Source: Synergistaceae bacterium (GTDB lineage Bacteria > Synergistota > Synergistia > Synergistales > Synergistaceae). From it: 59,679 bases of DNA. The stretch covers positions 1-59,679 of the forward strand of contig JAJFTP010000002.1 of NCBI GenBank assembly GCA_021372895.1, in the 5' to 3' direction. This document shows, piece by piece, positions 21,625 to 32,985 of this stretch; the stretch's first letter is position 1, and each line of letters begins with the position of its first letter. The notes beneath the pieces were generated by a model, which was not told the DNA's origin, made no database searches, and was given only the letters and a program-made list of their open reading frames with translations. The position numbers were made by a program, and so were the translations under genes.

Positions 21625-24210
21625 TCAGACTTTGCTGAGAGAATCCCCATGTTTTGGTTCCGCCTTGACAGGAACGCTCAGCACATCGACGCTCTCCATC
21701 ACTGCTACAAGCCGCTTTTCTACTGCATCGGCATCCTTTGCCCAGCATTCGCAGACTATGGAGTCATGTATCTGAAGAACAGGGAATGCCCCCGTAAATT
21801 CATCCGAGAGGACCTTATCAAACCTCATCAGCGCGATCTTCGCGATGTCGGAAGCAGCACTCTGTATCGGAGTATTTACCGCAACTCTGCCTATAGGATC
21901 ATTCCCTCTGCCCTCCACCGTCGATACCTCTGCCAGCGGCCGTATGCGGCCGAAGATAGAACGTGTAAAACCGGCAGCTCTGGCATCCTTCATGCTTTTG
22001 TCAAGATATTCTTTCACCTTCGGCAGAACACTGAAGTACCTCTCCACCATAGAAGCCGCCTGCGGTCTGGGGATACCAAGCCTCCGGCCCAACCCGTGAG
22101 CGCTCATTCCATAGAGCAGCCCGAAATTTACGACCTTGGCGAAACGCCTTTGTTCGGGAGTAATATCCTCCGGCGGCAGGCCGAACACCCAGGAGGCCGT
22201 CTCCATGTGAATGTCGCGTCCTTCCTTAAAAGCCTCTATAAGCCTTTCTTCGCCTGATAAGTGGGCAAGCACGCGAAGCTCGATCTGTGAATAGTCTGCC
22301 GCAACAAATATTTTATCCGGTGCGGACGGGACAAAGCAGTCCCTGAACCTGACTGCCCAGCGTCCAAAGACAGGCATATTCTGCACATTTGGGTCTCTGC
22401 TTGCAAGACGCCCTGTTCCGGTAGACAGATGATCAAAAGTGGAGTGGATGCGGCCGTCGCCATGTGATGAAAGATTGAGGAAAGGCTGTACAAACCCGGA
22501 AAGGATTTTCGTCAGTTCACGATACTCTATCAATTTCGACGGGATGTCGCAGAGCGGCTCGGGAAGCCGCGCCAGTTCTTCAAGCACACTTATGTCGGTC
22601 GAATATCCGGATTTGTTCTTTTTAAAAGGCGGAAGCCTGAGTTTCTCAAACAAAAGCCAACTTACCTGCTTTGGTGAGTTAAGGTTAATCCTCTCCCCTA
22701 TCATATCAGCAAGGTCGGTTTCAATACCTGTGATCTCCGTCTCAAGATCTGATGCCAGAACTGCAAGCCTGTTCCTGTCGATGGGAATACCATTATTTTG
22801 AAGTTTTGCAAGGACAGGACATAGGGGCAGGTCCAGTTCATACATAAGCTTATCAAGCGAATATTCCTTAAGCTGTCGTTCAAATGTATCATACATGCCG
22901 AACAGATCAGAGGCAAGCTCTGCCCCATGCCGGAGCTGACGTCCGATCGTCTTCTCTATGCCAGTTCCGCCCCTGTCAGGATGCAGAAGATAATGTGCTA
23001 TCTCAACGTCCTTGATATGGTGGAACGGCGGCAAGTGCAGCTGATTTTTCACAAGCATTTCGCGATAACCATAAAGCGTCAGTGTCCCTGACTCAGACCA
23101 TTCGGCAAAAGCAGCCGTTTCATCCGCATCGCAAAGCCTCAGACATGCGAAACGGCCATCCCTGGCGGCAAGAAAAAAATTATTCTCTTCTCCTGCAGCG
23201 ATCGCAAGCTCTTTCAATAAAAGTATTTCAGAAAGGTCCGACTTACATGGCGCAGGGACAGCGGAAACATACAGATCCGAGTTGTTTTCCTTATCTCCTC
23301 CATTGACTGCCGGCGCTTTCTGTGACGATTTTAATGTATTTCCGCCTTCTGCTGAAGTTTCAAAGCGCTGCAGCAGTTTCTTAAGCCCAAGTCTTGTGCA
23401 TAGCGGCCTCAATGACTCCATATCAGGCCCGGCGGCAGAAAGCTGCTCAAGAGACACAGCCTCGGTTATCTGCGGTATTATAAGCCCCCTGCTTAAAAAT
23501 ACCAGGTCTCTGTTTTCTTCAAGCTTGGAGCGTCTGCCCTTCGCAATTTCGCCGATATGTTCATAAATACCCTCCAGTGCCCCGTATGACACAATAAGTT
23601 CCCTGGCCGTCTTATCGCCTATTCCCGGGACTCCCGGTATGTTGTCCACAGTGTCGCCTATAAGGGAAAGGTAATCCGCCATTCTGGCGGGCGCAAATCC
23701 GAACTCTGCAGTGAAGTACCCTTCATCGTACAGCCTGAAGTCACTCACGCCCTTAGTCGGGCGTATGACTGATATATCCCCGCTCACTACCTGCAGGAGG
23801 TCCTTGTCGGCAGACAGGATATTCACTTTCCACCCGTCCTCTGCGGCAGAGCAGGCGGTAGAGACGATATAGTCATCCGCTTCGACTCCATCCCTGATAA
23901 AAACTGGTATGCCCATAGCCCTGCTCAACTCTATTATGAGAGGCAACTGTATCTTGAATTCTTCGGGGGTAGGGCGTCTTCCCTCCTTATACGCCTTGAA
24001 GATCTCATGGCGCCTCGTGGGTCCCTTGGGATCGAAGAAAAGACCGATACCATCCCTGCCCCATTTGTCCATGCCTTTGAGCAGCATATTCATAAAACCT
24101 ACGATGGCATTGGTCGGCGTCCCGTCAGAGGCCGCCAATGTCGCAGGAAGAGCGTAAAATCCCCTGAAAGCAAGCCCGTGTCCGTCTATCAAAAACATTT
24201 CCCTCTTCAT
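21625..24210 (-). CDS. polA: DNA polymerase I
   Basis: An 861-residue PolA. The N-terminal 5'-3' nuclease domain (about residues 1-290) has DGHGLAFRGFYA, DDYIVSTAC and GIGDKTAREL. The central 3'-5' exonuclease-like region (about 320-470) lacks the DxE proofreading motif, so it is degenerate as in Taq and Bacillus enzymes. The polymerase domain has motif A DYSQIELRVLAHLSGEE, motif B RRFAKVVNFGLLYG and motif C QIHDSIVCE. The start is uncertain between ATG 24222 and ATG 24210; the latter has GGGATGGG about 7 nt upstream. It is divergent from gltX. Confidence 0.94.
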   Translation of the reverse strand: MKREMFLIDGHGLAFRGFYALPATLAASDGTPTNAIVGFMNMLLKGMDKWGRDGIGLFFDPKGPTRRHEIFKAYKEGRRPTPEEFKIQLPLIIELSRAMGIPVFIRDGVEADDYIVSTACSAAEDGWKVNILSADKDLLQVVSGDISVIRPTKGVSDFRLYDEGYFTAEFGFAPARMADYLSLIGDTVDNIPGVPGIGDKTARELIVSYGALEGIYEHIGEIAKGRRSKLEENRDLVFLSRGLIIPQITEAVSLEQLSAAGPDMESLRPLCTRLGLKKLLQRFETSAEGGNTLKSSQKAPAVNGGDKENNSDLYVSAVPAPCKSDLSEILLLKELAIAAGEENNFFLAARDGRFACLRLCDADETAAFAEWSESGTLTLYGYREMLVKNQLHLPPFHHIKDVEIAHYLLHPDRGGTGIEKTIGRQLRHGAELASDLFGMYDTFERQLKEYSLDKLMYELDLPLCPVLAKLQNNGIPIDRNRLAVLASDLETEITGIETDLADMIGERINLNSPKQVSWLLFEKLRLPPFKKNKSGYSTDISVLEELARLPEPLCDIPSKLIEYRELTKILSGFVQPFLNLSSHGDGRIHSTFDHLSTGTGRLASRDPNVQNMPVFGRWAVRFRDCFVPSAPDKIFVAADYSQIELRVLAHLSGEERLIEAFKEGRDIHMETASWVFGLPPEDITPEQRRFAKVVNFGLLYGMSAHGLGRRLGIPRPQAASMVERYFSVLPKVKEYLDKSMKDARAAGFTRSIFGRIRPLAEVSTVEGRGNDPIGRVAVNTPIQSAASDIAKIALMRFDKVLSDEFTGAFPVLQIHDSIVCECWAKDADAVEKRLVAVMESVDVLSVPVKAEPKHGDSLSKV

Positions 24211-24213
24211 TAT

Positions 24214-24244
24214 TTGACCCATCCCCTGTCTCTTAGGGTATAAT
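24214..24244 (+). promoter_or_regulatory. Possible promoter of gltX
   Basis: Plus-strand TTGACC (24214-24219) and perfect TATAAT (24239-24244) with a long 19-bp spacer. It overlaps the polA start and leaves a gltX leader of about 145 nt. That leader contains a perfect 12-bp palindrome (TTTCATATGAAA, 24296-24307) but no T-box sequence that I can see. Confidence 0.4.
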
Positions 24245-24395
24245 CTCTAGTCGTGCGATGCTGAACTTATCGGGTCCATACCATAACTCATGCAGTTTCA
24301 TATGAAAACAGCACGGCTCGAATTGATTTCGCATAGGTTATAACGTGAATACCGTCCGGCCGTTAATTATTATAGACCATGGGAGGCATAATATA

Positions 24396-25739
24396 ATGAC
24401 AGATAAAGTCCGCGTAAGATTTGCACCCAGCCCTACAGGATCGCTGCACATAGGGGGAGCGCACACGGCCCTCTTTAACTGGCTATGGGCCCGCCACACA
24501 GGCGGGACATTCGTCCTCCGCATAGAGGACACGGATGCGGAGCGCTCGACGGCCGAATATGAAAGGAGCATCCTCGACGGGATGCGGTGGATGGGCTTCG
24601 ACTGGGACGAGGGGCCGGACAAAGGCGGGGATTTCGGACCATACAGGCAGTCCGAGCGTATGGAGTCATACCGCGATTATGCGAACCGGCTGGTCGACAC
24701 CGGACAGGCATATGTCCGGGACGGCGCAATATTTTATAAGGTCCCCTCCGGCAAGCTTATTGCATTTGACGATGCGGTCTACGGACACATAGAGGTTATG
24801 AGCGAAAATGCGTCGGTCAATCAAGACGGCTCAATAAAGGACATCGTCATAATCAAGAGGGACGGAATGCCCACATACAACTACGCGGTGGTCATAGACG
24901 ACTTTACAATGAAGATCAACACTGTAATAAGAGGCGAAGACCACATCATAAATACACCTAAACAGCTGCTCCTCTACGATGCCCTCGGGTTTGAGCCGCC
25001 AAAGTTCGCGCACCTTCCGATGATCCTCGGAAAGGACAAGAAGAAGCTCTCAAAGAGGCAGGGCGCAACGAGCGTCTTTGAATACAGCGACATGGGCTAT
25101 CTTTCCGACGGGGTCTTCAACTTTCTAGCTCTGCTTGGCTGGTCGCCGAGAAACGGGCAGGAGATATTTACGCGCGAGGATGCAGTGAAACTCTTCGATA
25201 TTACAGCCGTAACAAAAAAGCCGGCGGTTCTCGATATGGACAAACTGAACCATATCAACCAGGAGCAGATGAAGATCATGGATCCGATGAAGCTTCTGGG
25301 GATCATCCGCCCGATCTGGCTAAAGATGGGCCTTGACCTCAGTCCGTTCACTGACGAGTACCTTGCGGCAGCCCTCCGCACCATGGGCGGCAGAGGACAG
25401 ACCACCCTGCAGCTCGCGGATTACAGCGACTACTTTATCTCTTTTGATGCGGTAAAGAGGCGCTACGATGCCTCGGAGATCAGCGCCGAACATAGGGATA
25501 TCCTCAAAAAATTCTGCGGAGAGCTCCTCAGTAAGATGGAAGAATGGAAGCCCGATGAGCTTGAGGCCTTTACTAAAGCATGGACAGCGACAAACGGCAG
25601 CAGCATGAAAGAAGTGGCAATGCCGTTACGCTGGGCGTTGACCGGACGCAAGGTCAGCCCGGGCGTCTTCGAAGTCGCGGCGCAGCTTGGCAAAGAAGAG
25701 TGCCGCAGACGGCTTAAATATTACGATTTCGTGGATTGA
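24396..25739 (+). CDS. gltX: Glutamate--tRNA ligase
   Basis: A 447-residue class I aminoacyl-tRNA synthetase charging tRNA-Glu. The HIGH motif appears as HIGG (residues 18-21, in GSLHIGGAHTALFNW) and the KMSKS motif as KKLSKRQGATS (about residue 220). The C-terminal helical anticodon-binding region is slightly short for the family. ATG 24396 was chosen because GGGAGG lies 11 nt upstream and the protein then opens with the usual VRVRFAPSPTG. The presence of glnS next door suggests it need not mischarge tRNA-Gln. Confidence 0.95.
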   Translation: MTDKVRVRFAPSPTGSLHIGGAHTALFNWLWARHTGGTFVLRIEDTDAERSTAEYERSILDGMRWMGFDWDEGPDKGGDFGPYRQSERMESYRDYANRLVDTGQAYVRDGAIFYKVPSGKLIAFDDAVYGHIEVMSENASVNQDGSIKDIVIIKRDGMPTYNYAVVIDDFTMKINTVIRGEDHIINTPKQLLLYDALGFEPPKFAHLPMILGKDKKKLSKRQGATSVFEYSDMGYLSDGVFNFLALLGWSPRNGQEIFTREDAVKLFDITAVTKKPAVLDMDKLNHINQEQMKIMDPMKLLGIIRPIWLKMGLDLSPFTDEYLAAALRTMGGRGQTTLQLADYSDYFISFDAVKRRYDASEISAEHRDILKKFCGELLSKMEEWKPDELEAFTKAWTATNGSSMKEVAMPLRWALTGRKVSPGVFEVAAQLGKEECRRRLKYYDFVD

Positions 25740-25815: not shown

Positions 25816-27507
25816 TTACATAGACTGCTGTTTCTTCTGCTCCTTGCCCCATGAATCCTTCAAAGAGACGGCCAGGTTAAAGACAGGTGATTCCGGCCGG
25901 CTTTCATGATCCGCACAGAAATATCCATGGCGCAGAAACTGAAATTTCTCCAGAGGCTTCGCTTGTGCAACAATCGGCTCAACAAGAGCGTTATCAATGA
26001 CAACGAGAGAATCCGGATTCAGATAGTCCTTATAATCCTTTCCTGCTTCCATCTCGCTCATATTACGGAGCGTGAAAAGATTACTGTAGAGGTTGACTCT
26101 GGCAGTAACCGCATCCCCAGCCCATACCCAGTGCAGGGTGCCCTTTATCTTTCTTCCGTCAGGAGCGTCTCCGCCGCGGCTATCCATGTCAGCGATGCAG
26201 CGCAGCTCTGTGACTTCGCCGTCCTTATTTTTTACGACATTGACACATTTTATTATATATGCATATTTCAGACGGACTTCACTTCCCGGTGAAAGCCGGA
26301 AGAAACCCTTTACAGGATCCTCCATAAAATCTTCGCGCTCTATAAATATTTCCCTGCCTATCCTCACCATGCGGCTGCCTGCCGACGGGTCTTCCGGATT
26401 ATTTTCAGCATTAAGTTCGTCTACGAAATCCTCAGCCCAGTTTTCGATCACGACCTTCAACGGGTGCAGTACCGCCATTGCGCGCGGTGCCGTCTTGTTA
26501 AGCTCCTCCCTCAGAAAGTGCTGTAGAAGTTCAACCTCGACAAGGCTGTCTGCCTTTGAGACTCCTATCTCCCTGCAGAAGCGGCGGATCGACTCCGGGG
26601 TATATCCCCTGCGTCTGAATCCGCATATTGTAGGCATACGCGGGTCGTCCCAGCCGGACACGATCCCGAGGTTAACGAGTTCAAGCAGCTTCCTCTTGCT
26701 CATGAGGGTATATGTCAGGTTAAGCCTGGCAAACTCATACTGATGAGGCACATGCGGGGTACTGACGTTTGCGATGAACCAATCGTAAAGAGGCCTGTGG
26801 TCCTGAAACTCAAGGGTGCAGATAGAATGGGTCACGCCCTCTATCGCATCTTCATAGCCGTGTGCAAAGTCATACATCGGATAGACGCACCACTTGTCGC
26901 CTGTCCTGTGATGGCTGCGCTTCAGGATACGGTAGATCACAGGGTCCCTCATATTTAGGTTGCTGCTGGACATGTCTATCTTAGCACGCAGGACATGCGA
27001 ACCCTCTTCGAACTCACCTTTAGTCATCCTGTCAAACAGGTCCAGGTTCTCCTCCACACTGCGGCCGCGATACGGTGAATCTACGCCCGGCTTCGTCAGA
27101 GTCCCGCGGTTGATCCTTATTTCTTCGGCAGTCTGGTCATCTACGTAGGCCTTGCCAGCCTTTATAAGTTCGATTGCCCACCGGTGGAGCTGATCAAAGT
27201 AATCCGAGGCATAGCAGAGCTTAGCCCATTTAAAACCCAGCCATCTGACATCTTCCTGAATCGACTCGACATACTCCGTCTCTTCCTTTGTCGGGTTAGT
27301 GTCGTCAAATCTCAGATTGCAATCCCCCCCAAACTGTTCGGAAAGTCCGAAGTTGATACAGATCGACTTTGCATGGCCTATGTGCAGATATCCGTTAGGC
27401 TCGGGAGGGAAACGCGTCCTGACAGATTTTACCTCGCCGCTCTCGAGATCTTTTTTTATAATATCTTCAAGGAAATTAAGGTTTTTTGACTCTCCTGCTG
27501 TATTCAT
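25816..27507 (-). CDS. glnS: Glutamine--tRNA ligase
   Basis: A 563-residue GlnRS. The catalytic domain has [17 protein letters not shown] (HIGH) and the KMSKS equivalent LMSKRKL (about residue 270). Two C-terminal beta-barrels for anticodon binding follow ([11 protein letters not shown] and [11 protein letters not shown]). The ATG at 27507 has GGAGG 7 nt upstream. GlnRS is patchy in bacteria and generally thought to have been acquired by transfer. Together with tRNA-Gln at the left edge it indicates direct glutaminylation. Confidence 0.95.
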
Positions 27508-27610
27508 TCGTAAACCTCCAGGGTATTGAAATAAGAACTCTAATTCTATCACGTAAAATCAGACACATATTACCAAATTTGCCCTGTCGTGATAATAGGG
27601 TCGAGCGGAT

Positions 27611-28639
27611 TTAAAATGCAGCCGCCTCCAGCGATAATTTTACAGCCTCGTAGTAAACGAGCACCATTGCTGCCGCTGTCAGGACGGGAAACAGCATGAT
27701 GCGTGCATAGCAGGGGATCTTCCTCTCAAACATCTCCGTCAGTTTCCAGCATACAGGGCAAACAAAGACCCTGACAATAATAACTACAAACCAGAATACT
27801 ACAAAATTAAACACCTGAAACCACCATGAAATACCGGAGCCAGAAGTGTCAAGTGTCTTGAAATAGTTCCACGGGAAAAAAATGTGCGTGATTACAGCGA
27901 TAATGATATAGGCTCGGAAAACCGCCCAGATCTGCATTATAGCTCTCTGGCAGCCCTGATATTCCACAAGTTCCCCTTCGTCGAACAGCGCGCAGCCCAT
28001 CAGAGGGCCGCTGTGCGGGATCTGGCTTATTATAATAAATATAAAGAGAATTATGCCCGCGGTCCCCCACCACCCAATCGCAGTCCCCTGCAGTAAAACT
28101 GAGAACGAGTTAAGGCTGAAGGCATCGACCTCCGGTGCAGCCATGTTAAAATACCAGGAGACCGAAGCGACAAACGCTATGAGCGGCAGCATAAAACAGG
28201 CCAGTTCCTTCATAAGTCTGAACGCGGACTTATTGGCCGACGGAGAACCAAGCGAGTAAATTGTGAGGACGGACAGCGCCTCGGATGTCAGAAAAAACTG
28301 CAGTATCTGCATAATATCACTGCCGTTATCAAGTATCGGCACCACCGTACAAAAAGGAATACTTGCACACACTGGTAAAAACGCCGCAAATGCAAGCGCC
28401 GGACCATAAAGCGCCAGCCCAGCACATGCAGTCTCAGGCAAAATGACAGTTCCAGAAAAAGCCCTCCTTATCAAAACTAAGGGCGAAGCGACCGCCTTTA
28501 CGCTTGACTGACTATTCCGTTTAAGAATATACAGAAGATAATAATACAAGCTCTCAGCAAAGACCGCCGAAAGTATAGTGGCACACATAAGGAGTCCTGC
28601 GTAAAAATATTTAAGGATCAAATAAAACAGGTCTGTCAT
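27611..28639 (-). CDS. NuoH/HyfC-like membrane subunit, divergent
   Basis: A 342-residue protein with about eight membrane helices. It resembles the NuoH / hydrogenase-4 HyfC / EchB family: a middle SP-x(4)-S-x-x-R-x-x-x-E segment (SPSANKSAFRLMKE) and a cytosolic LFDEGELVEYQG loop recall the quinone-site loops SPFGALGSSRE and E-x-ELV-x-EYSG. The usual N-terminal R-x-GP motif of NuoH is not visible. It is the third gene of a module with a NuoN-like protein and a small two-helix protein; GGGGAGG precedes its start inside the upstream gene. No hydrogenase, NuoCD or iron-sulfur subunit is nearby, so its electron donor and function are unknown. Confidence 0.7.
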   Translation of the reverse strand: MTDLFYLILKYFYAGLLMCATILSAVFAESLYYYLLYILKRNSQSSVKAVASPLVLIRRAFSGTVILPETACAGLALYGPALAFAAFLPVCASIPFCTVVPILDNGSDIMQILQFFLTSEALSVLTIYSLGSPSANKSAFRLMKELACFMLPLIAFVASVSWYFNMAAPEVDAFSLNSFSVLLQGTAIGWWGTAGIILFIFIIISQIPHSGPLMGCALFDEGELVEYQGCQRAIMQIWAVFRAYIIIAVITHIFFPWNYFKTLDTSGSGISWWFQVFNFVVFWFVVIIVRVFVCPVCWKLTEMFERKIPCYARIMLFPVLTAAAMVLVYYEAVKLSLEAAAF

Positions 28640-28645
28640 GTGCTC

Positions 28646-28960
28646 TTATCCTCCCCACCAGCGGCAGGAAATTGCGATCATAAACAGAGCAAAAAGCACT
28701 GCGATAGCGATCACATGTATCTGCACCAGGTTTATCCACGGTTCTATGCACTCTTTCCTGAATGTGCGGATTTTATTCTCCGTTAAAGATAAAATCTCCC
28801 CCGGCTCGGCCGATACGCTCGTAACCTTGACAAAACGGCCGGTCCTTGCCCTTATGACAGCATAAGTAAGCAGACAGACGATCGCGGCCGATAATACAAA
28901 AACCATAGTCCATGTGAGGAAATTCCACACAAAATAACCTGTAGTGATGCGGTAGTTCAT
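28646..28960 (-). CDS. Small two-helix membrane protein of the complex-I-like module
   Basis: A 104-residue protein I do not recognise. It has one hydrophobic helix near residues 12-36, a polar middle of about 40 residues (SAEPGEILSLTENKIRTFRKE) likely cytosolic, and a second helix near 78-97 ending in RWWGG. The ATG overlaps the NuoN-like stop by 4 nt (ATGA) and the next gene starts 6 nt later, so all three are translated together. It could bridge the NuoN-like and NuoH-like subunits, as small subunits do in hydrogenase complexes; this is inference from position only. Confidence 0.75.
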   Translation of the reverse strand: MNYRITTGYFVWNFLTWTMVFVLSAAIVCLLTYAVIRARTGRFVKVTSVSAEPGEILSLTENKIRTFRKECIEPWINLVQIHVIAIAVLFALFMIAISCRWWGG

Positions 28961-30561
28961 CTTAAAGCACCGTCCTGCCGGATAGTGTTTACTATATGCT
29001 GTCCCCTGTTTATCAGAGACTCTGCCGACGGAGATACCGCTATTTCAAAGAACCTGCCGGGAGCGGCGGTGGCAAAGGTAAAGATAAGAAAAAGGAGCAA
29101 AAGAGGGAGAGCGATTGCAATATCACCATCAAAGCAGGCAGTTCCTTCCTCCATTGCCCTGCCGAACATCAATTCCCCAATATAGCGCAGGCCGGTGAGC
29201 AGCAATAGTATCGAAGCCATAAAAAGTGCCGCCATAAGAAACGGGCTTATAAAATTAGAGGATCGCAATAAAAATTGTTTTGCGGCAAAACCGGCAAACG
29301 GAGGCAGACCGGCCATAACACAGACTGTGAGAAAAAGCGCCGTTCCGGTATAGGGTAACTTCCGCCAAAGCCCTCTTCTGCACCACAGTTCCACACCATC
29401 CGTTTTTTCTTTGAGCAGGCAGCAGATAACAGAGAGAGCCGCAGAGACAGGCAGAAATATCATCCAAAGAGAGACCATGCCTTCAAGCGCGCCAAGGCCA
29501 TAGCGTGCGGCAGACTCAGCGCTGAACGTGCCGTTGATACTGATGCCCAGAGAGACGAGCATAAATCCCTTCATGTACATTTCCATACAATCTGCAAATT
29601 TGACCGGATCCCTCTCCTTTGCCGAGAATATCACGGCTGAAGCAAGAGAGAGGAGCCCAAGAATAATGAAAAATCCCGGCATCTTCTCTAACCCCTTCAT
29701 AGGACCGAAGAGGAAGAAAACGATCCGGAAGACAACGAAAAAAGCCGCCTGTGCCCTTATCCCGAAGAAACAGCGCCGACCCGCATCAGTAACGTACGAA
29801 GATGGTTTAATGAAGAGGAAGAAAAGCGGCACGACCAGCAGGGCAAATGCCAACAGCTCAAACGGCCCGGACCTTATCACGGCAGAGAGAGTGGCAATAT
29901 TATCTGTCTTATAATGCAGATAAAGTATCATTGTCCCCGATAAAAACATAAGGAGGAGGATCGCCCTGGAAATATAATACCAGACTGAGCACCAAAATAC
30001 GCTCCTGTCAGCGGGCACTCCCCTGTAAAGACCTGAAGCCCCGATCTGGGCTACTGCTATAAAAAGAAAAAGGGAGAAAAGACCGTTGGAATAAAATATT
30101 CCCTGGATACCACATAGCGTAAGCAGATAAAATGCGGCTTTTGTGGGAGAGAAAGCATGTTTTTTATCAGCGAGAGAGCGCAGTGCCGCGATCAGCGCGA
30201 CAAAACCCATGACGACTGCGGACATTGCTCCAAGAGGATCTACCTGCATCAGAGTATGGATCCGCACGCCGCTGATCCCGGACAATGTCTCCTTCCATCC
30301 TCCGCTGCCAAAGACGTAAAAGACAGTACCCTCTGAACTGGATCGAAGCCATATCGCAAAAGCTAAAACAAGATTTAGGATAAAAATGAGCAAAAAAGAC
30401 ATTTTCAATGCATTCCTGTTTATATTCATGACCCTGCCTGTGCTCATAAATATTATCTTGTGATAAAAGCGCAGGCATAAAATTATTGCCGCACCGACAA
30501 AAGGTAGACACAGACTGAGAAAAGGCAACGGTACAGTTGGCAGCAAACGCAAAATCCCCAT
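28957..30561 (-). CDS. NuoN/HyfB-like antiporter-type membrane subunit, degenerate
   Basis: A 534-residue protein with about 13-14 membrane helices, related to the MrpA/D-NuoL/M/N family (Proton_antipo_M). The late GLPPFAGFAAKQFLL motif (Lys428) is conserved. However, the helix that normally carries the essential Glu (F-W-E in NuoM) reads LFIAVAQIGAS near residues 166-176 with no acidic residue. The helix before the TDAG motif (257-261) has no lysine at the usual position; the nearest is Lys252. It could thus be structural or use other residues. SD AGGAG is 7 nt before the ATG. It is first in the three-gene module. Confidence 0.75.
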   Translation of the reverse strand: MGILRLLPTVPLPFLSLCLPFVGAAIILCLRFYHKIIFMSTGRVMNINRNALKMSFLLIFILNLVLAFAIWLRSSSEGTVFYVFGSGGWKETLSGISGVRIHTLMQVDPLGAMSAVVMGFVALIAALRSLADKKHAFSPTKAAFYLLTLCGIQGIFYSNGLFSLFLFIAVAQIGASGLYRGVPADRSVFWCSVWYYISRAILLLMFLSGTMILYLHYKTDNIATLSAVIRSGPFELLAFALLVVPLFFLFIKPSSYVTDAGRRCFFGIRAQAAFFVVFRIVFFLFGPMKGLEKMPGFFIILGLLSLASAVIFSAKERDPVKFADCMEMYMKGFMLVSLGISINGTFSAESAARYGLGALEGMVSLWMIFLPVSAALSVICCLLKEKTDGVELWCRRGLWRKLPYTGTALFLTVCVMAGLPPFAGFAAKQFLLRSSNFISPFLMAALFMASILLLLTGLRYIGELMFGRAMEEGTACFDGDIAIALPLLLLFLIFTFATAAPGRFFEIAVSPSAESLINRGQHIVNTIRQDGALR

Positions 30562-30705: not shown

Positions 30706-30894
30706 TTCAACCCACCCTCAAATGTAGAGAGAAATTAACACCTGATCATGATTATGTCAAATTAGAAATACTCGTGTTCAAAATTCAAGCGTTATGATAA
30801 AATACAGTAATTAGATAGAGATACATTGTCAAAGAACATTTTTTTCCCATGTTGTTTCTCCACAAAATCTTAATAATTTAAAGGAGTGATTGAC
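30706..30894. other. Intergenic region between divergent membrane module and symporter
   Basis: This 189-bp AT-rich stretch separates the minus-strand module from the plus-strand symporter. I see no strong sigma70 promoter pair. TAAAAT-type -10 candidates lie around 30797-30802 and a TTGTCA at about 30826. No RNA gene or repeat is evident. Confidence 0.5.
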
Positions 30895-32127
30895 GTGCAG
30901 GCAAAGAAAGAAATGCCGCTTATCTGGAAGATCGCGATAGGTTTCGTGATCGGTATTGCGCTCGGATTTATTATTGGTCCTATGGTCAGCACCAGCCCGT
31001 TCATAGCAGATTTTCTTATGCCACTTCTTAATCTCATAGGCAATATATTCCTGGCCCTGCTGAAGATGCTCATCGTCCCTCTTGTATTTTCCAGCATAAT
31101 TACAGGAGCTGCTTCTATCGGGGACCCGAAAGTACTTGGACGCATCGGGGTCAAGACCGTAGCTCTCTATCTATGTACGACGGTAGTGGCAGTTGCAATC
31201 GGACTTATCCTCGGCAATCTTATCCAGCCTGGCGTGGGGCTCAACATTACAGCCGGCGTAACTGCCGAAGCGAAGGCTGGGGCGTCGATGACTGAAGTCC
31301 TCATGAACATCTTTCCTTCCAATCCGATGCAGGCTCTTGTCAACGGCATCATGCTCCAGGTAATAGTATTCGCGCTCTTCCTCGGGGTATCTGCCGCACT
31401 GATCGGTGAAAAGGGCCGCAAATTCCTTGAATTTAACGCGTCCCTTGCCGAGACGATGTACAAAATGACCGGCATAGTCATGAAATTTGCGCCTGTCGGC
31501 ATCTTCGCGCTGATCGCGGTTACAGCCGCAAAGTATGGCCTGTCGGTCCTCGCACCGTTTGCGAAGGTCATTCTGGCCGTCTACCTAGGCTGCTTCCTTC
31601 AGGCGGCGATCGTTTACTCCGGACTTATTGCCGGCATTACGAAAAAATCGCCGCTTTGGTTCTTCGGCGGCGTCAAAGAGGCAATGCTTGCCGCTTTTGT
31701 CACGCGTTCAAGCTCCGGGGTGCTCCCCATCTCCATGAGAAACGTGCAGGAGAACCTCGGCGTATCTGAGAAGGTTTCCTCCTTTGTCCTGCCTCTGGGA
31801 GCTACGATCAACATGGACGGCACAGCCCTCTATCAGGGTGTATGCGCCCTGTTTGTGGCACAGGCATTCGGAATCGACCTGTCGATGGGAGCCCAGATAG
31901 GAATACTCATCACAGCAACGCTTGCCTCTATCGGTACGGCAGGTGTGCCGGGAGCCGGGCTTATCATGCTGTCCATGGTCCTCACATCCGCCGGGCTCCC
32001 TATCGAGGGTATGGGATTGGTCGCTGGCATAGATGCCATCCTTGACATGGCACGCACATCCATCAACGTCACGGGTGACATGTGTGTGTCAGCCGTAGTT
32101 GCAAGAACAGAAGGAGAAAAGTTCTGA
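30895..32127 (+). CDS. Dicarboxylate/amino acid:cation symporter (DAACS, GltP/GltT-like)
   Basis: A 410-residue transporter of the glutamate transporter homologue fold, with eight membrane helices and two re-entrant hairpins. Signatures seen: TRSSSGVLP in hairpin 1, NMDGTALYQG in helix 7 (Na+/substrate site), SIGTAGVPGAG in hairpin 2, and DMARTSINVTGD in helix 8. There Asp and Arg (D..R..N...D) match residues that bind acidic amino acids in GltPh. Substrate is therefore probably aspartate, glutamate or a C4 acid. GTG 30895 has AAGGAG 8 nt upstream. It is monocistronic, ending in a strong terminator, and suits an amino-acid-fermenting Synergistota lifestyle. Confidence 0.9.
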   Translation: MQAKKEMPLIWKIAIGFVIGIALGFIIGPMVSTSPFIADFLMPLLNLIGNIFLALLKMLIVPLVFSSIITGAASIGDPKVLGRIGVKTVALYLCTTVVAVAIGLILGNLIQPGVGLNITAGVTAEAKAGASMTEVLMNIFPSNPMQALVNGIMLQVIVFALFLGVSAALIGEKGRKFLEFNASLAETMYKMTGIVMKFAPVGIFALIAVTAAKYGLSVLAPFAKVILAVYLGCFLQAAIVYSGLIAGITKKSPLWFFGGVKEAMLAAFVTRSSSGVLPISMRNVQENLGVSEKVSSFVLPLGATINMDGTALYQGVCALFVAQAFGIDLSMGAQIGILITATLASIGTAGVPGAGLIMLSMVLTSAGLPIEGMGLVAGIDAILDMARTSINVTGDMCVSAVVARTEGEKF

Positions 32128-32185: not shown

Positions 32186-32833
32186 CTAAATATGCCGTTT
32201 TTTTATATCAAAGCAGACAAATCCGCCTCCCAGTTTTGTCGTTTTATACCAAAGCGTCAGGTTGATGTGGGATACGGCGCCGTCATCAATTATATCTATA
32301 AAGGCCTGCTCACCTTCGTATTCAAGCTTTATAACCGTTACCCAGTGCCAGACATCAAGATTTTCTTCTTCGCCGCTGTCCAGGTTCAAAAAAGCAACAG
32401 GCAGGTCCATGCGCAACCCCACCTCCAAAAATCTTATGATCTCAGCAAGGGAGGGCCATGAAGAGGCAGGGCTGTGCATATCGCAGATCGCGCACCTGCT
32501 GACACAGAGCCCTTTGTCTTTTGCGTAGGAGAGCAGATACTTATAAAAAAGGTCCGTAGAGGGAAGCCCCCTTTCGGATGGCGTGACATACTGCCACATT
32601 TCTTCCATCAGAACGAGAAAATCCTTCTTGCTTATATATTTACCCTTAGCATAAGGATCCGAGCGTGAAAGAAGCATATAAGAGACCAAGTCTGAAGCTA
32701 CAGAGGGACCGCACCCGGCTCTGCGCTGCTGTTCCGTCCCATACCACTTCTGACTGCTGCCAAGGTGTACTTCACCGGTCGCCTCGTCAAAAATCTTAAA
32801 CAACTCCGGATTAGACAGTGACACTTTTGTCAT
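32186..32833 (-). CDS. Hypothetical protein with papain-like (C39-type) cysteine peptidase signature
   Basis: A 215-residue protein starting at ATG 32833 (AAGGAAG 8 nt upstream). It has no signal peptide and no membrane segment. AGCGPSVASDL (Cys41) looks like a nucleophile at the head of a helix, WHWVTVI (His163) like the catalytic histidine strand, and IIDDG (Asp183/184) like the third residue: the order and spacing of C39/papain-like folds. Two further cysteines (CAIC, 114 and 117) lie between. Family and substrate are unknown to me. It is a lone minus-strand gene. Confidence 0.65.
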   Translation of the reverse strand: MTKVSLSNPELFKIFDEATGEVHLGSSQKWYGTEQQRRAGCGPSVASDLVSYMLLSRSDPYAKGKYISKKDFLVLMEEMWQYVTPSERGLPSTDLFYKYLLSYAKDKGLCVSRCAICDMHSPASSWPSLAEIIRFLEVGLRMDLPVAFLNLDSGEEENLDVWHWVTVIKLEYEGEQAFIDIIDDGAVSHINLTLWYKTTKLGGGFVCFDIKKRHI

Positions 32834-32985
32834 TTTACTCACTTCCTTATTACAAAACACACATTGCAACAGATCTTACAGAAAAAATTATTGCCATGCA
32901 CACCCTGACATTATAAATGTAACAGTAAGAATTGCAAGTCCTTGATATAACTGGATTTATGCCGTTATTTCCTATATAATCCCCT

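What the first reader, a model, noticed from the sequence alone, without database searches (positions are those of the whole stretch)
27611..30561. Orphan three-gene complex-I/hydrogenase-like membrane module
NuoN-like, small two-helix and NuoH-like genes are overlapping or a few nt apart, yet no NuoCD, NuoB, hydrogenase or iron-sulfur gene is in the surrounding 10 kb. Membrane arms of this family normally couple to a catalytic arm. Inference: either the catalytic subunits are encoded elsewhere, or this is a reduced ion-translocating or sensory complex not described before.
Basis: partly seen in the sequence, partly recalled or inferred. Interest (0 to 1): 0.7.

Follow-up and report, generated by a model that had tools for sequence, protein, structure and literature searches.

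The report
Stripped-down hydrogenase membrane core
Three neighbouring genes in this anaerobic bacterium (family Synergistaceae) encode only the membrane core of an ancient hydrogen-making ion pump: the enzyme part and the sodium-pump part have been deleted and the classical proton-carrying residues are gone, yet selection has kept the three remaining proteins throughout one clade, so they very probably do a new, redox-independent job.

Summary
Three intact minus-strand genes (534, 104, 342 aa) abut at 27611-30561 with no catalytic arm nearby. They are not orphan Nuo genes but the MbhH-MbhI-MbhM core of a membrane-bound [NiFe]-hydrogenase (MBH). Sister Synergistales families, and one Synergistaceae genome, carry the full MBH operon at the same locus (beside gltX-polA). 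In one Synergistaceae clade (24 genomes, 12 genera) only this trio remains; NuoB, NuoD, [NiFe] large-subunit and MnhE families are absent from those genomes, the window's own included. It is not decay: dN/dS is 0.05-0.23 and the trio is kept across the clade (one absence, beside a contig break). It is not a working MBH proton module either: the TM5 Glu is gone in 22/22 N proteins, an 8-residue deletion removes the TM7 Lys in 22/22, the MbhI coupling loop is deleted in 15/15, and the docking motif of the H protein is gone. New invariant polar residues are fixed in the membrane helices (N: Q172, R199, K331, Q429, R433; H: Q111). Best reading: a redox-uncoupled, repurposed MBH core with a rebuilt polar axis; what it moves or binds is unknown. 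New variant of a known kind; no description found in the open-access papers searched.

The parts
28957..30561 (-). MbhH/MrpD/NuoN-like protein, 534 aa; canonical TM5 Glu replaced (A169 here), TM7 Lys segment deleted, TM12 Lys kept (K428); new conserved polar residues Q172, R199, K252, K331, E360, Q429, R433
   Evidence: NF006240 5.8e-38; 6cfw_H 8.5e-14; AF2 model, top PDB match 6cfw_H; residue table and deletion
28646..28960 (-). MbhI-like small two-helix protein, 104 aa, with the TM1-2 coupling loop shortened by 11 residues
   Evidence: searches (alignment with canonical MbhI; shared TGFxxWDVxxW-like N-terminus; 12 of 22 members of the alignment match NF053600 MbhI, only 7 of the 22 being canonical; the window's own copy does not), position between N and H as in MBH
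27611..28639 (-). MbhM/NuoH-like protein, 342 aa; canonical DR..ARMQRRxGPP..QPFYD..KL..KE cytoplasmic motif gone, TM5-6 loop shorter; new conserved Q111, Q114, D172, R232, Q275, R290 (and E120)
25816..27552 (-). glnS (GlnRS), same-strand gene downstream of the trio in all trio loci examined, directly or after an asparaginase gene; co-transcription likely but inferred
24345..25739 (+). gltX, conserved syntenic marker: also next to the full MBH operon in sister families
21625..24222 (-). polA, conserved syntenic marker; used for the species tree
30886..32127 (+). SDF-family (GltP-like) glutamate/aspartate symporter, divergent from the trio in about half of the trio loci; probably a neighbour, not a subunit

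Best explanation
The trio is the membrane core (MbhH + MbhI + MbhM) of an ancestral membrane-bound [NiFe]-hydrogenase, left at its original chromosomal site after an ancestor of one Synergistaceae clade lost the hydrogenase arm (MbhJ, K, L, N) and the Mrp sodium module (MbhA-G). SHOWN by sequence: homology, same locus, loss of partners, single clade, long retention under purifying selection, removal of three coupling elements (TM1-2 loop of MbhI, TM5-6 loop and docking motif of MbhM, Glu/Lys axis of MbhH), and fixation of new polar residues in membrane helices. INFERRED: the three proteins still assemble; the complex is uncoupled from redox chemistry and no longer runs the Glu-Lys-Lys proton route; the new polar axis (N: Q172, R199, K331, E360, K428/Q429, R433; H: Q111, Q114, E120, R232, R242) conducts or binds an ion or small charged solute in a passive or secondary fashion, so that it works as a channel, secondary transporter or ion/potential-responsive device and not as a primary pump. 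The origin and uncoupling part is about 0.95 certain; the confidence given is for the whole statement including the transport role.
For: Origin: canonical operon in sister families with Mrp E, F, B, C subunits, MbhH, MbhI (above the NF053600 cut-off), J, K, L (RICGIC/DPCISC Ni ligands), M, N; order MBH-(asparaginase)-gltX-polA vs N-S-H-(asparaginase)-glnS-gltX-polA. Best structural and sequence match of both large proteins is 6cfw, the P. furiosus MBH. One origin: trio genomes form one polA clade (22 + G024, 100/99); trio H proteins one clade (100/100). Partners absent. Selection: dN/dS 0.05-0.23. Coupling elements gone and new polar residues fixed. Those loops are proposed coupling elements in MBH (PMC11228991), and the middle/terminal lysines matter for proton conduction by isolated antiporter modules (PMC11496545). 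The energy role is covered otherwise: Rnf is present in the window genome.
Against: No assay, no complex model, no expression data. The new intramembrane charges could equally be inter-subunit salt bridges of a non-transporting scaffold. Ancestral neighbours explain part of the synteny, so gene context gives little functional hint. Loop alignments between trio and canonical proteins are approximate, and single-residue counts depend on them.
Confidence: 0.45

Rival explanations
1. Non-transporting scaffold: the MBH core became a membrane platform (assembly, anchoring or sensing) for an unidentified partner; the new charges are inter-subunit salt bridges.
For: Whole classical ion route removed in all members; folds retained; purifying selection.
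Against: No conserved soluble partner gene is encoded with the trio: only glnS is constant; asparaginase, SDF symporter and CbiMQO are patchy. Many new invariant polar residues lie in mid-helix.
Confidence: 0.33
2. Minimal classical proton/sodium translocator: N still conducts protons like an isolated NuoL/MrpD module.
For: Isolated antiporter modules conduct protons on their own (PMC11496545); TM12 Lys kept in 18/22.
Against: TM5 Glu 0/22, TM7 Lys deleted 22/22, conserved His and Lys after TM10 lost; no MnhE sodium-module subunit in the genome.
Confidence: 0.12
3. Catalytic subunits are encoded elsewhere in the genome and dock onto the trio.
For: The genome is 96% complete in 97 contigs, so a missing locus is conceivable.
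Against: No PF01058, PF00346 or PF00374 match in the own genome or in any of the other trio genomes, several of them 99-100% complete, two in one contig; docking motif and coupling loops gone.
Confidence: 0.04
4. Vestigial operon on its way out (simple breakage).
For: Two other Synergistaceae lineages have lost the locus completely.
Against: 24 genomes in 12 genera with essentially intact frames and dN/dS 0.05-0.23; one clade with continued retention.
Confidence: 0.03

Closest known systems
Membrane-bound [NiFe]-hydrogenase MBH (group 4d; P. furiosus 6CFW)
   Same: MbhH, MbhI and MbhM homologs, same relative gene order and locus; best sequence and fold matches
   Different: no MbhJ/K/L/N, no Mrp module; coupling loops, docking motif and Glu/Lys proton axis lost
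Mrp cation/proton antiporter
   Same: N is related to MrpD (structural matches 9a6h, 6z16, 7qru)
   Different: no MrpA, B, C, E, F, G; has a NuoH-type subunit, which Mrp lacks (PMC7419157); proton-path residues lost
Energy-converting hydrogenase-related (Ehr) complexes
   Same: also derived complexes of the superfamily that are no longer hydrogenases (own knowledge, not tested)
   Different: Ehr keep the peripheral subunits; the trio has none
Respiratory complex I membrane arm (NuoH/NuoN)
   Same: same folds
   Different: nearest relatives are MBH, not Nuo; one antiporter-like subunit; no quinone-site partner subunits

Membership tests
MBH [NiFe]-hydrogenase | MbhL/NuoD-type large subunit with Ni ligands | tested here: not met
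   no PF00346 or PF00374 in own genome or trio genomes
MBH [NiFe]-hydrogenase | MbhJ (NuoB-type) Fe-S subunit | tested here: not met
   no PF01058 in own genome or trio genomes
MBH [NiFe]-hydrogenase | Mrp sodium module (MbhA-G) | tested here: not met
   no MNHE PF01899 in any trio genome; other small Mrp subunits were not searched genome-wide, none is in the neighbourhood
MBH [NiFe]-hydrogenase | MbhH - MbhI - ... - MbhM membrane core in that order | tested here: met
Mrp antiporter | MrpA plus MrpB-G | tested here: not met
   one PF00361 match in own genome, the trio N itself; no MNHE
Antiporter-like proton module (NuoL/M/N, MrpD, MbhH) | TM5 Glu - TM7 Lys ion pair | tested here: not met
   Glu 0/22; Lys segment deleted 22/22
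Antiporter-like proton module (NuoL/M/N, MrpD, MbhH) | 14-TM antiporter-like fold | tested here: met
   AF2 model vs 6cfw_H, TM 0.83 on target
NuoH/MbhM | fold of NuoH/MbhM | tested here: met
   6cfw_M top match, TM 0.71 on target; profile E=1.3e-13
NuoH/MbhM | cytoplasmic docking motif and acidic TM5-6 loop | tested here: not met
   one loop acid (D/E before Y/F-x-G) is kept in 21/23
Functional three-subunit complex | physical assembly | not testable with these tools
   only single-chain prediction available

The most novel reading that the evidence does not exclude
A new kind of redox-independent membrane transporter or channel built from complex-I-superfamily parts (antiporter-like + MbhI + NuoH-type subunit), which has swapped the widely conserved Glu-Lys proton axis for a different, arginine/lysine/glutamine-rich axis and moves something other than protons.
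Probability: 0.28. Interest if true: 0.85.

Novelty: new variant of a known kind. Interest (0 to 1): 0.62.

Why it matters
Complex I is thought to have arisen by joining modules. Here is the reverse, traced to one clade and kept by selection: both functional ends were cut off and the middle survives with its coupling elements removed. It is a natural test of which residues serve coupling and pumping and which serve the fold, and it asks what an uncoupled NuoH-type protein, the interface subunit of complex I, can do without a redox arm. Standard annotation misses it, as the H protein matches no Pfam family.

Tried and rejected
(1) Catalytic arm elsewhere: five families searched, none in the own genome. 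(2) Classical Nuo or stand-alone Mrp remnant: nearest relatives are MBH. (3) Pseudogene/decay: dN/dS and retention argue against. (4) Function from neighbours: glnS is constant, asparaginase already sits next to the MBH operon in several families, so it is inherited context; CbiMQO occurs only in one genus; no functional inference drawn. (5) genome-contig scans: the first found nothing, a 21-row alignment was not conserved enough, a 7-row alignment returned six loci, all Synergistaceae MAGs. (6) The second H-like gene in the own genome (contig C58) is a separate clade, not a missing part of the trio. (7) Promoter/terminator scans: twice the shuffled number, no clear site that decides operon limits. 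(8) Literature: no paper describing such a stub found in the held open-access library; subscription papers were not searchable.

Full report
OBSERVATION. Three intact minus-strand ORFs lie at 28957-30561, 28646-28960 and 27611-28639, overlapping by 4 nt and separated by 6 nt (sequence). The first matches antiporter-like models of the MrpD/Mbh type (NF006240 5.8e-38) and PDB 6cfw_H (8.5e-14). The other two match no curated family convincingly by themselves, and none of 21 orthologs of the third matches any Pfam family. The neighbours scanned within about 10 kb are glnS, gltX, polA, a Thy1-family protein, DUF1385, an SDF symporter, an endonuclease-III-like protein with a probable repair-type Fe-S cluster, an M14 peptidase, Fe-ADH, a flavodoxin and a SurA-like protein, i.e. 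no redox arm.

IDENTITY. A search of 101 related genomes found H homologs in 63. Larger regions were fetched and genes called. In sister families the same genes lie in a complete membrane-bound hydrogenase operon: Mrp subunits E, F, B, C, then MbhH, MbhI (115 bits vs cut-off 95 for NF053600), MbhJ, K, L with RICGIC and DPCISC motifs, MbhM and a ferredoxin-like MbhN. Both large trio proteins have the P. furiosus MBH as top match by predicted structure (H: 6cfw_M, TM 0.71 on target; N: 6cfw_H, TM 0.83 on target), and the H profile matches 6cfw_M at 1.3e-13. Profile-profile comparison of trio H with canonical MbhM gives 99.4%. At least five trio small proteins match the MbhI model at E<=1 (12 of 22 rows match, 7 rows are canonical).

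SAME LOCUS. In the MBH families the order is Mrp part - MbhH - I - J - K - L - M - N - (asparaginase) - gltX - polA; in many trio loci it is N - S - H - (asparaginase) - glnS - gltX - polA, and in the rest the stretch fetched ends or diverges after glnS. So the trio is the MBH operon at its ancestral site with the Mrp genes and the catalytic genes gone. Asparaginase is inherited context; glnS has joined in the trio clade (it lies elsewhere in G005 and g3).

DISTRIBUTION. The trio N and H occur in 24 of 53 genomes of the family, in 12 genera, and in no other family of the phylum, where the matches are the weaker, canonical type (188 genomes). NuoB- and NuoD-type subunits, [NiFe] large subunit and MnhE are found in only one genome of the family, G005, which has the complete MBH. 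The own genome has no PF00146 match and a single PF00361 match, the trio N gene. Rnf is present, so another ferredoxin-driven ion pump exists.

ONE CLADE, THEN RETENTION. A polA tree puts 22 trio genomes and G024 in one clade (100/99); G024 has only a glnS fragment at a contig start, so its missing trio may be an assembly gap. The H proteins of the trio form one clade (100/100). Two other Synergistaceae lineages (g3; and the g11/g16/g18 group) lack both MBH and trio; their fetched gltX-polA loci show no remnant. dN/dS between trio members is 0.05-0.23 for N, 0.07-0.20 for H and 0.05-0.16 for the small protein (Nei-Gojobori; several dS values above 1.5 are near saturation). This is purifying selection, not decay.

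WHAT WAS REMOVED. Against 13 canonical Synergistales sequences: N lost the TM5 Glu (13/13 to 0/22) and, by an 8-residue deletion in all 22, the segment holding the TM7 Lys; a conserved His and Lys further on (canonical H353, K361) are also gone; the TM12 Lys is kept in 18/22. The MbhI-like protein lost 11 residues of its TM1-2 loop in 15/15. H lost the conserved cytoplasmic motif after its first helix and has a shorter TM5-6 loop. In MBH simulations the TM1-2 loop of MbhI and the TM5-6 loop of MbhM are proposed links between the [NiFe] site and the pump (PMC11228991), and substituting lysines of isolated antiporter modules blocks proton conduction partly or fully (PMC11496545). So both the coupling and the classical proton route are gone.

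WHAT WAS GAINED. Trio-specific conserved polar residues appear in predicted helices: in N Q172, R199, K331, W366, Q429 and R433 (22/22 each), K252, E360 and K384 (20/22 each); in H Q111 and R232 (23/23), D172 (23/23, in a loop), R290 (22/23), Q275 (21/23), Q114 and E120 (20/23). Charged residues in membrane helices are costly and usually kept for a reason.

MECHANISM. The best-supported statement is an uncoupled, repurposed MBH core (origin and uncoupling: about 0.95). For what it does, a rebuilt polar axis serving as passive or secondary conductor of an ion or small solute (about 0.45) is preferred slightly over a non-transporting scaffold (0.33); a classical proton translocator (0.12), hidden catalytic subunits (0.04) and decay (0.03) are unlikely.

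NOVELTY. Not an MBH, not an Mrp antiporter, not a Nuo complex by the tested features. No description was found in the open-access library. A survey of complex I across prokaryotes lists incomplete sets in 2,171 species without naming Synergistota (PMC12361115). A description of the energy metabolism of Cloacibacillus porcorum lists Rnf, FeFe-hydrogenases and a V-type ATPase in the passage read, and no MBH there (PMC12366334). Classed as a new variant of a known kind.

Noticed in passing
own genome contig C58, locus L049:2490-3413 (-); also L070, L071, L122, L123: A second, single orphan NuoH/MbhM-like protein (about 303-308 aa), a clade of its own, lacking the acidic TM5-6 loop, near what looks like a TAXI-type TRAP transporter and convergent with a conserved 187-195 aa ORF. 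No NCBIfam match.
   Followed up: partly
L063 (G056:C2) and L068 (G073:C1), family f5: MBH operons that keep the hydrogenase CxxC motifs but whose MbhH lost the TM5 Glu and has Arg for the TM7 Lys, and whose MbhM lost TM5-6 loop acids: the opposite kind of reduction, a catalytic arm on a possibly non-pumping membrane arm.
   Followed up: partly
L034, L036, L037, L039 (genus g8): A CbiM/CbiQ/CbiO-like (cobalt/nickel ECF) transporter cluster sits directly upstream of the trio in this genus only.
   Followed up: no
window 25816-27552: Within Synergistaceae a strong glnS (GlnRS) match occurs only in the trio clade, G005 and genus g3; the group without trio and MBH (g11/g16/g18) has none.
   Followed up: partly
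window 32186-32869 (-): 227-aa protein without Pfam match, with a cysteine-peptidase-like look (GCGPSVASDLVSYM), divergent from an endonuclease-III-like gene.
   Followed up: no
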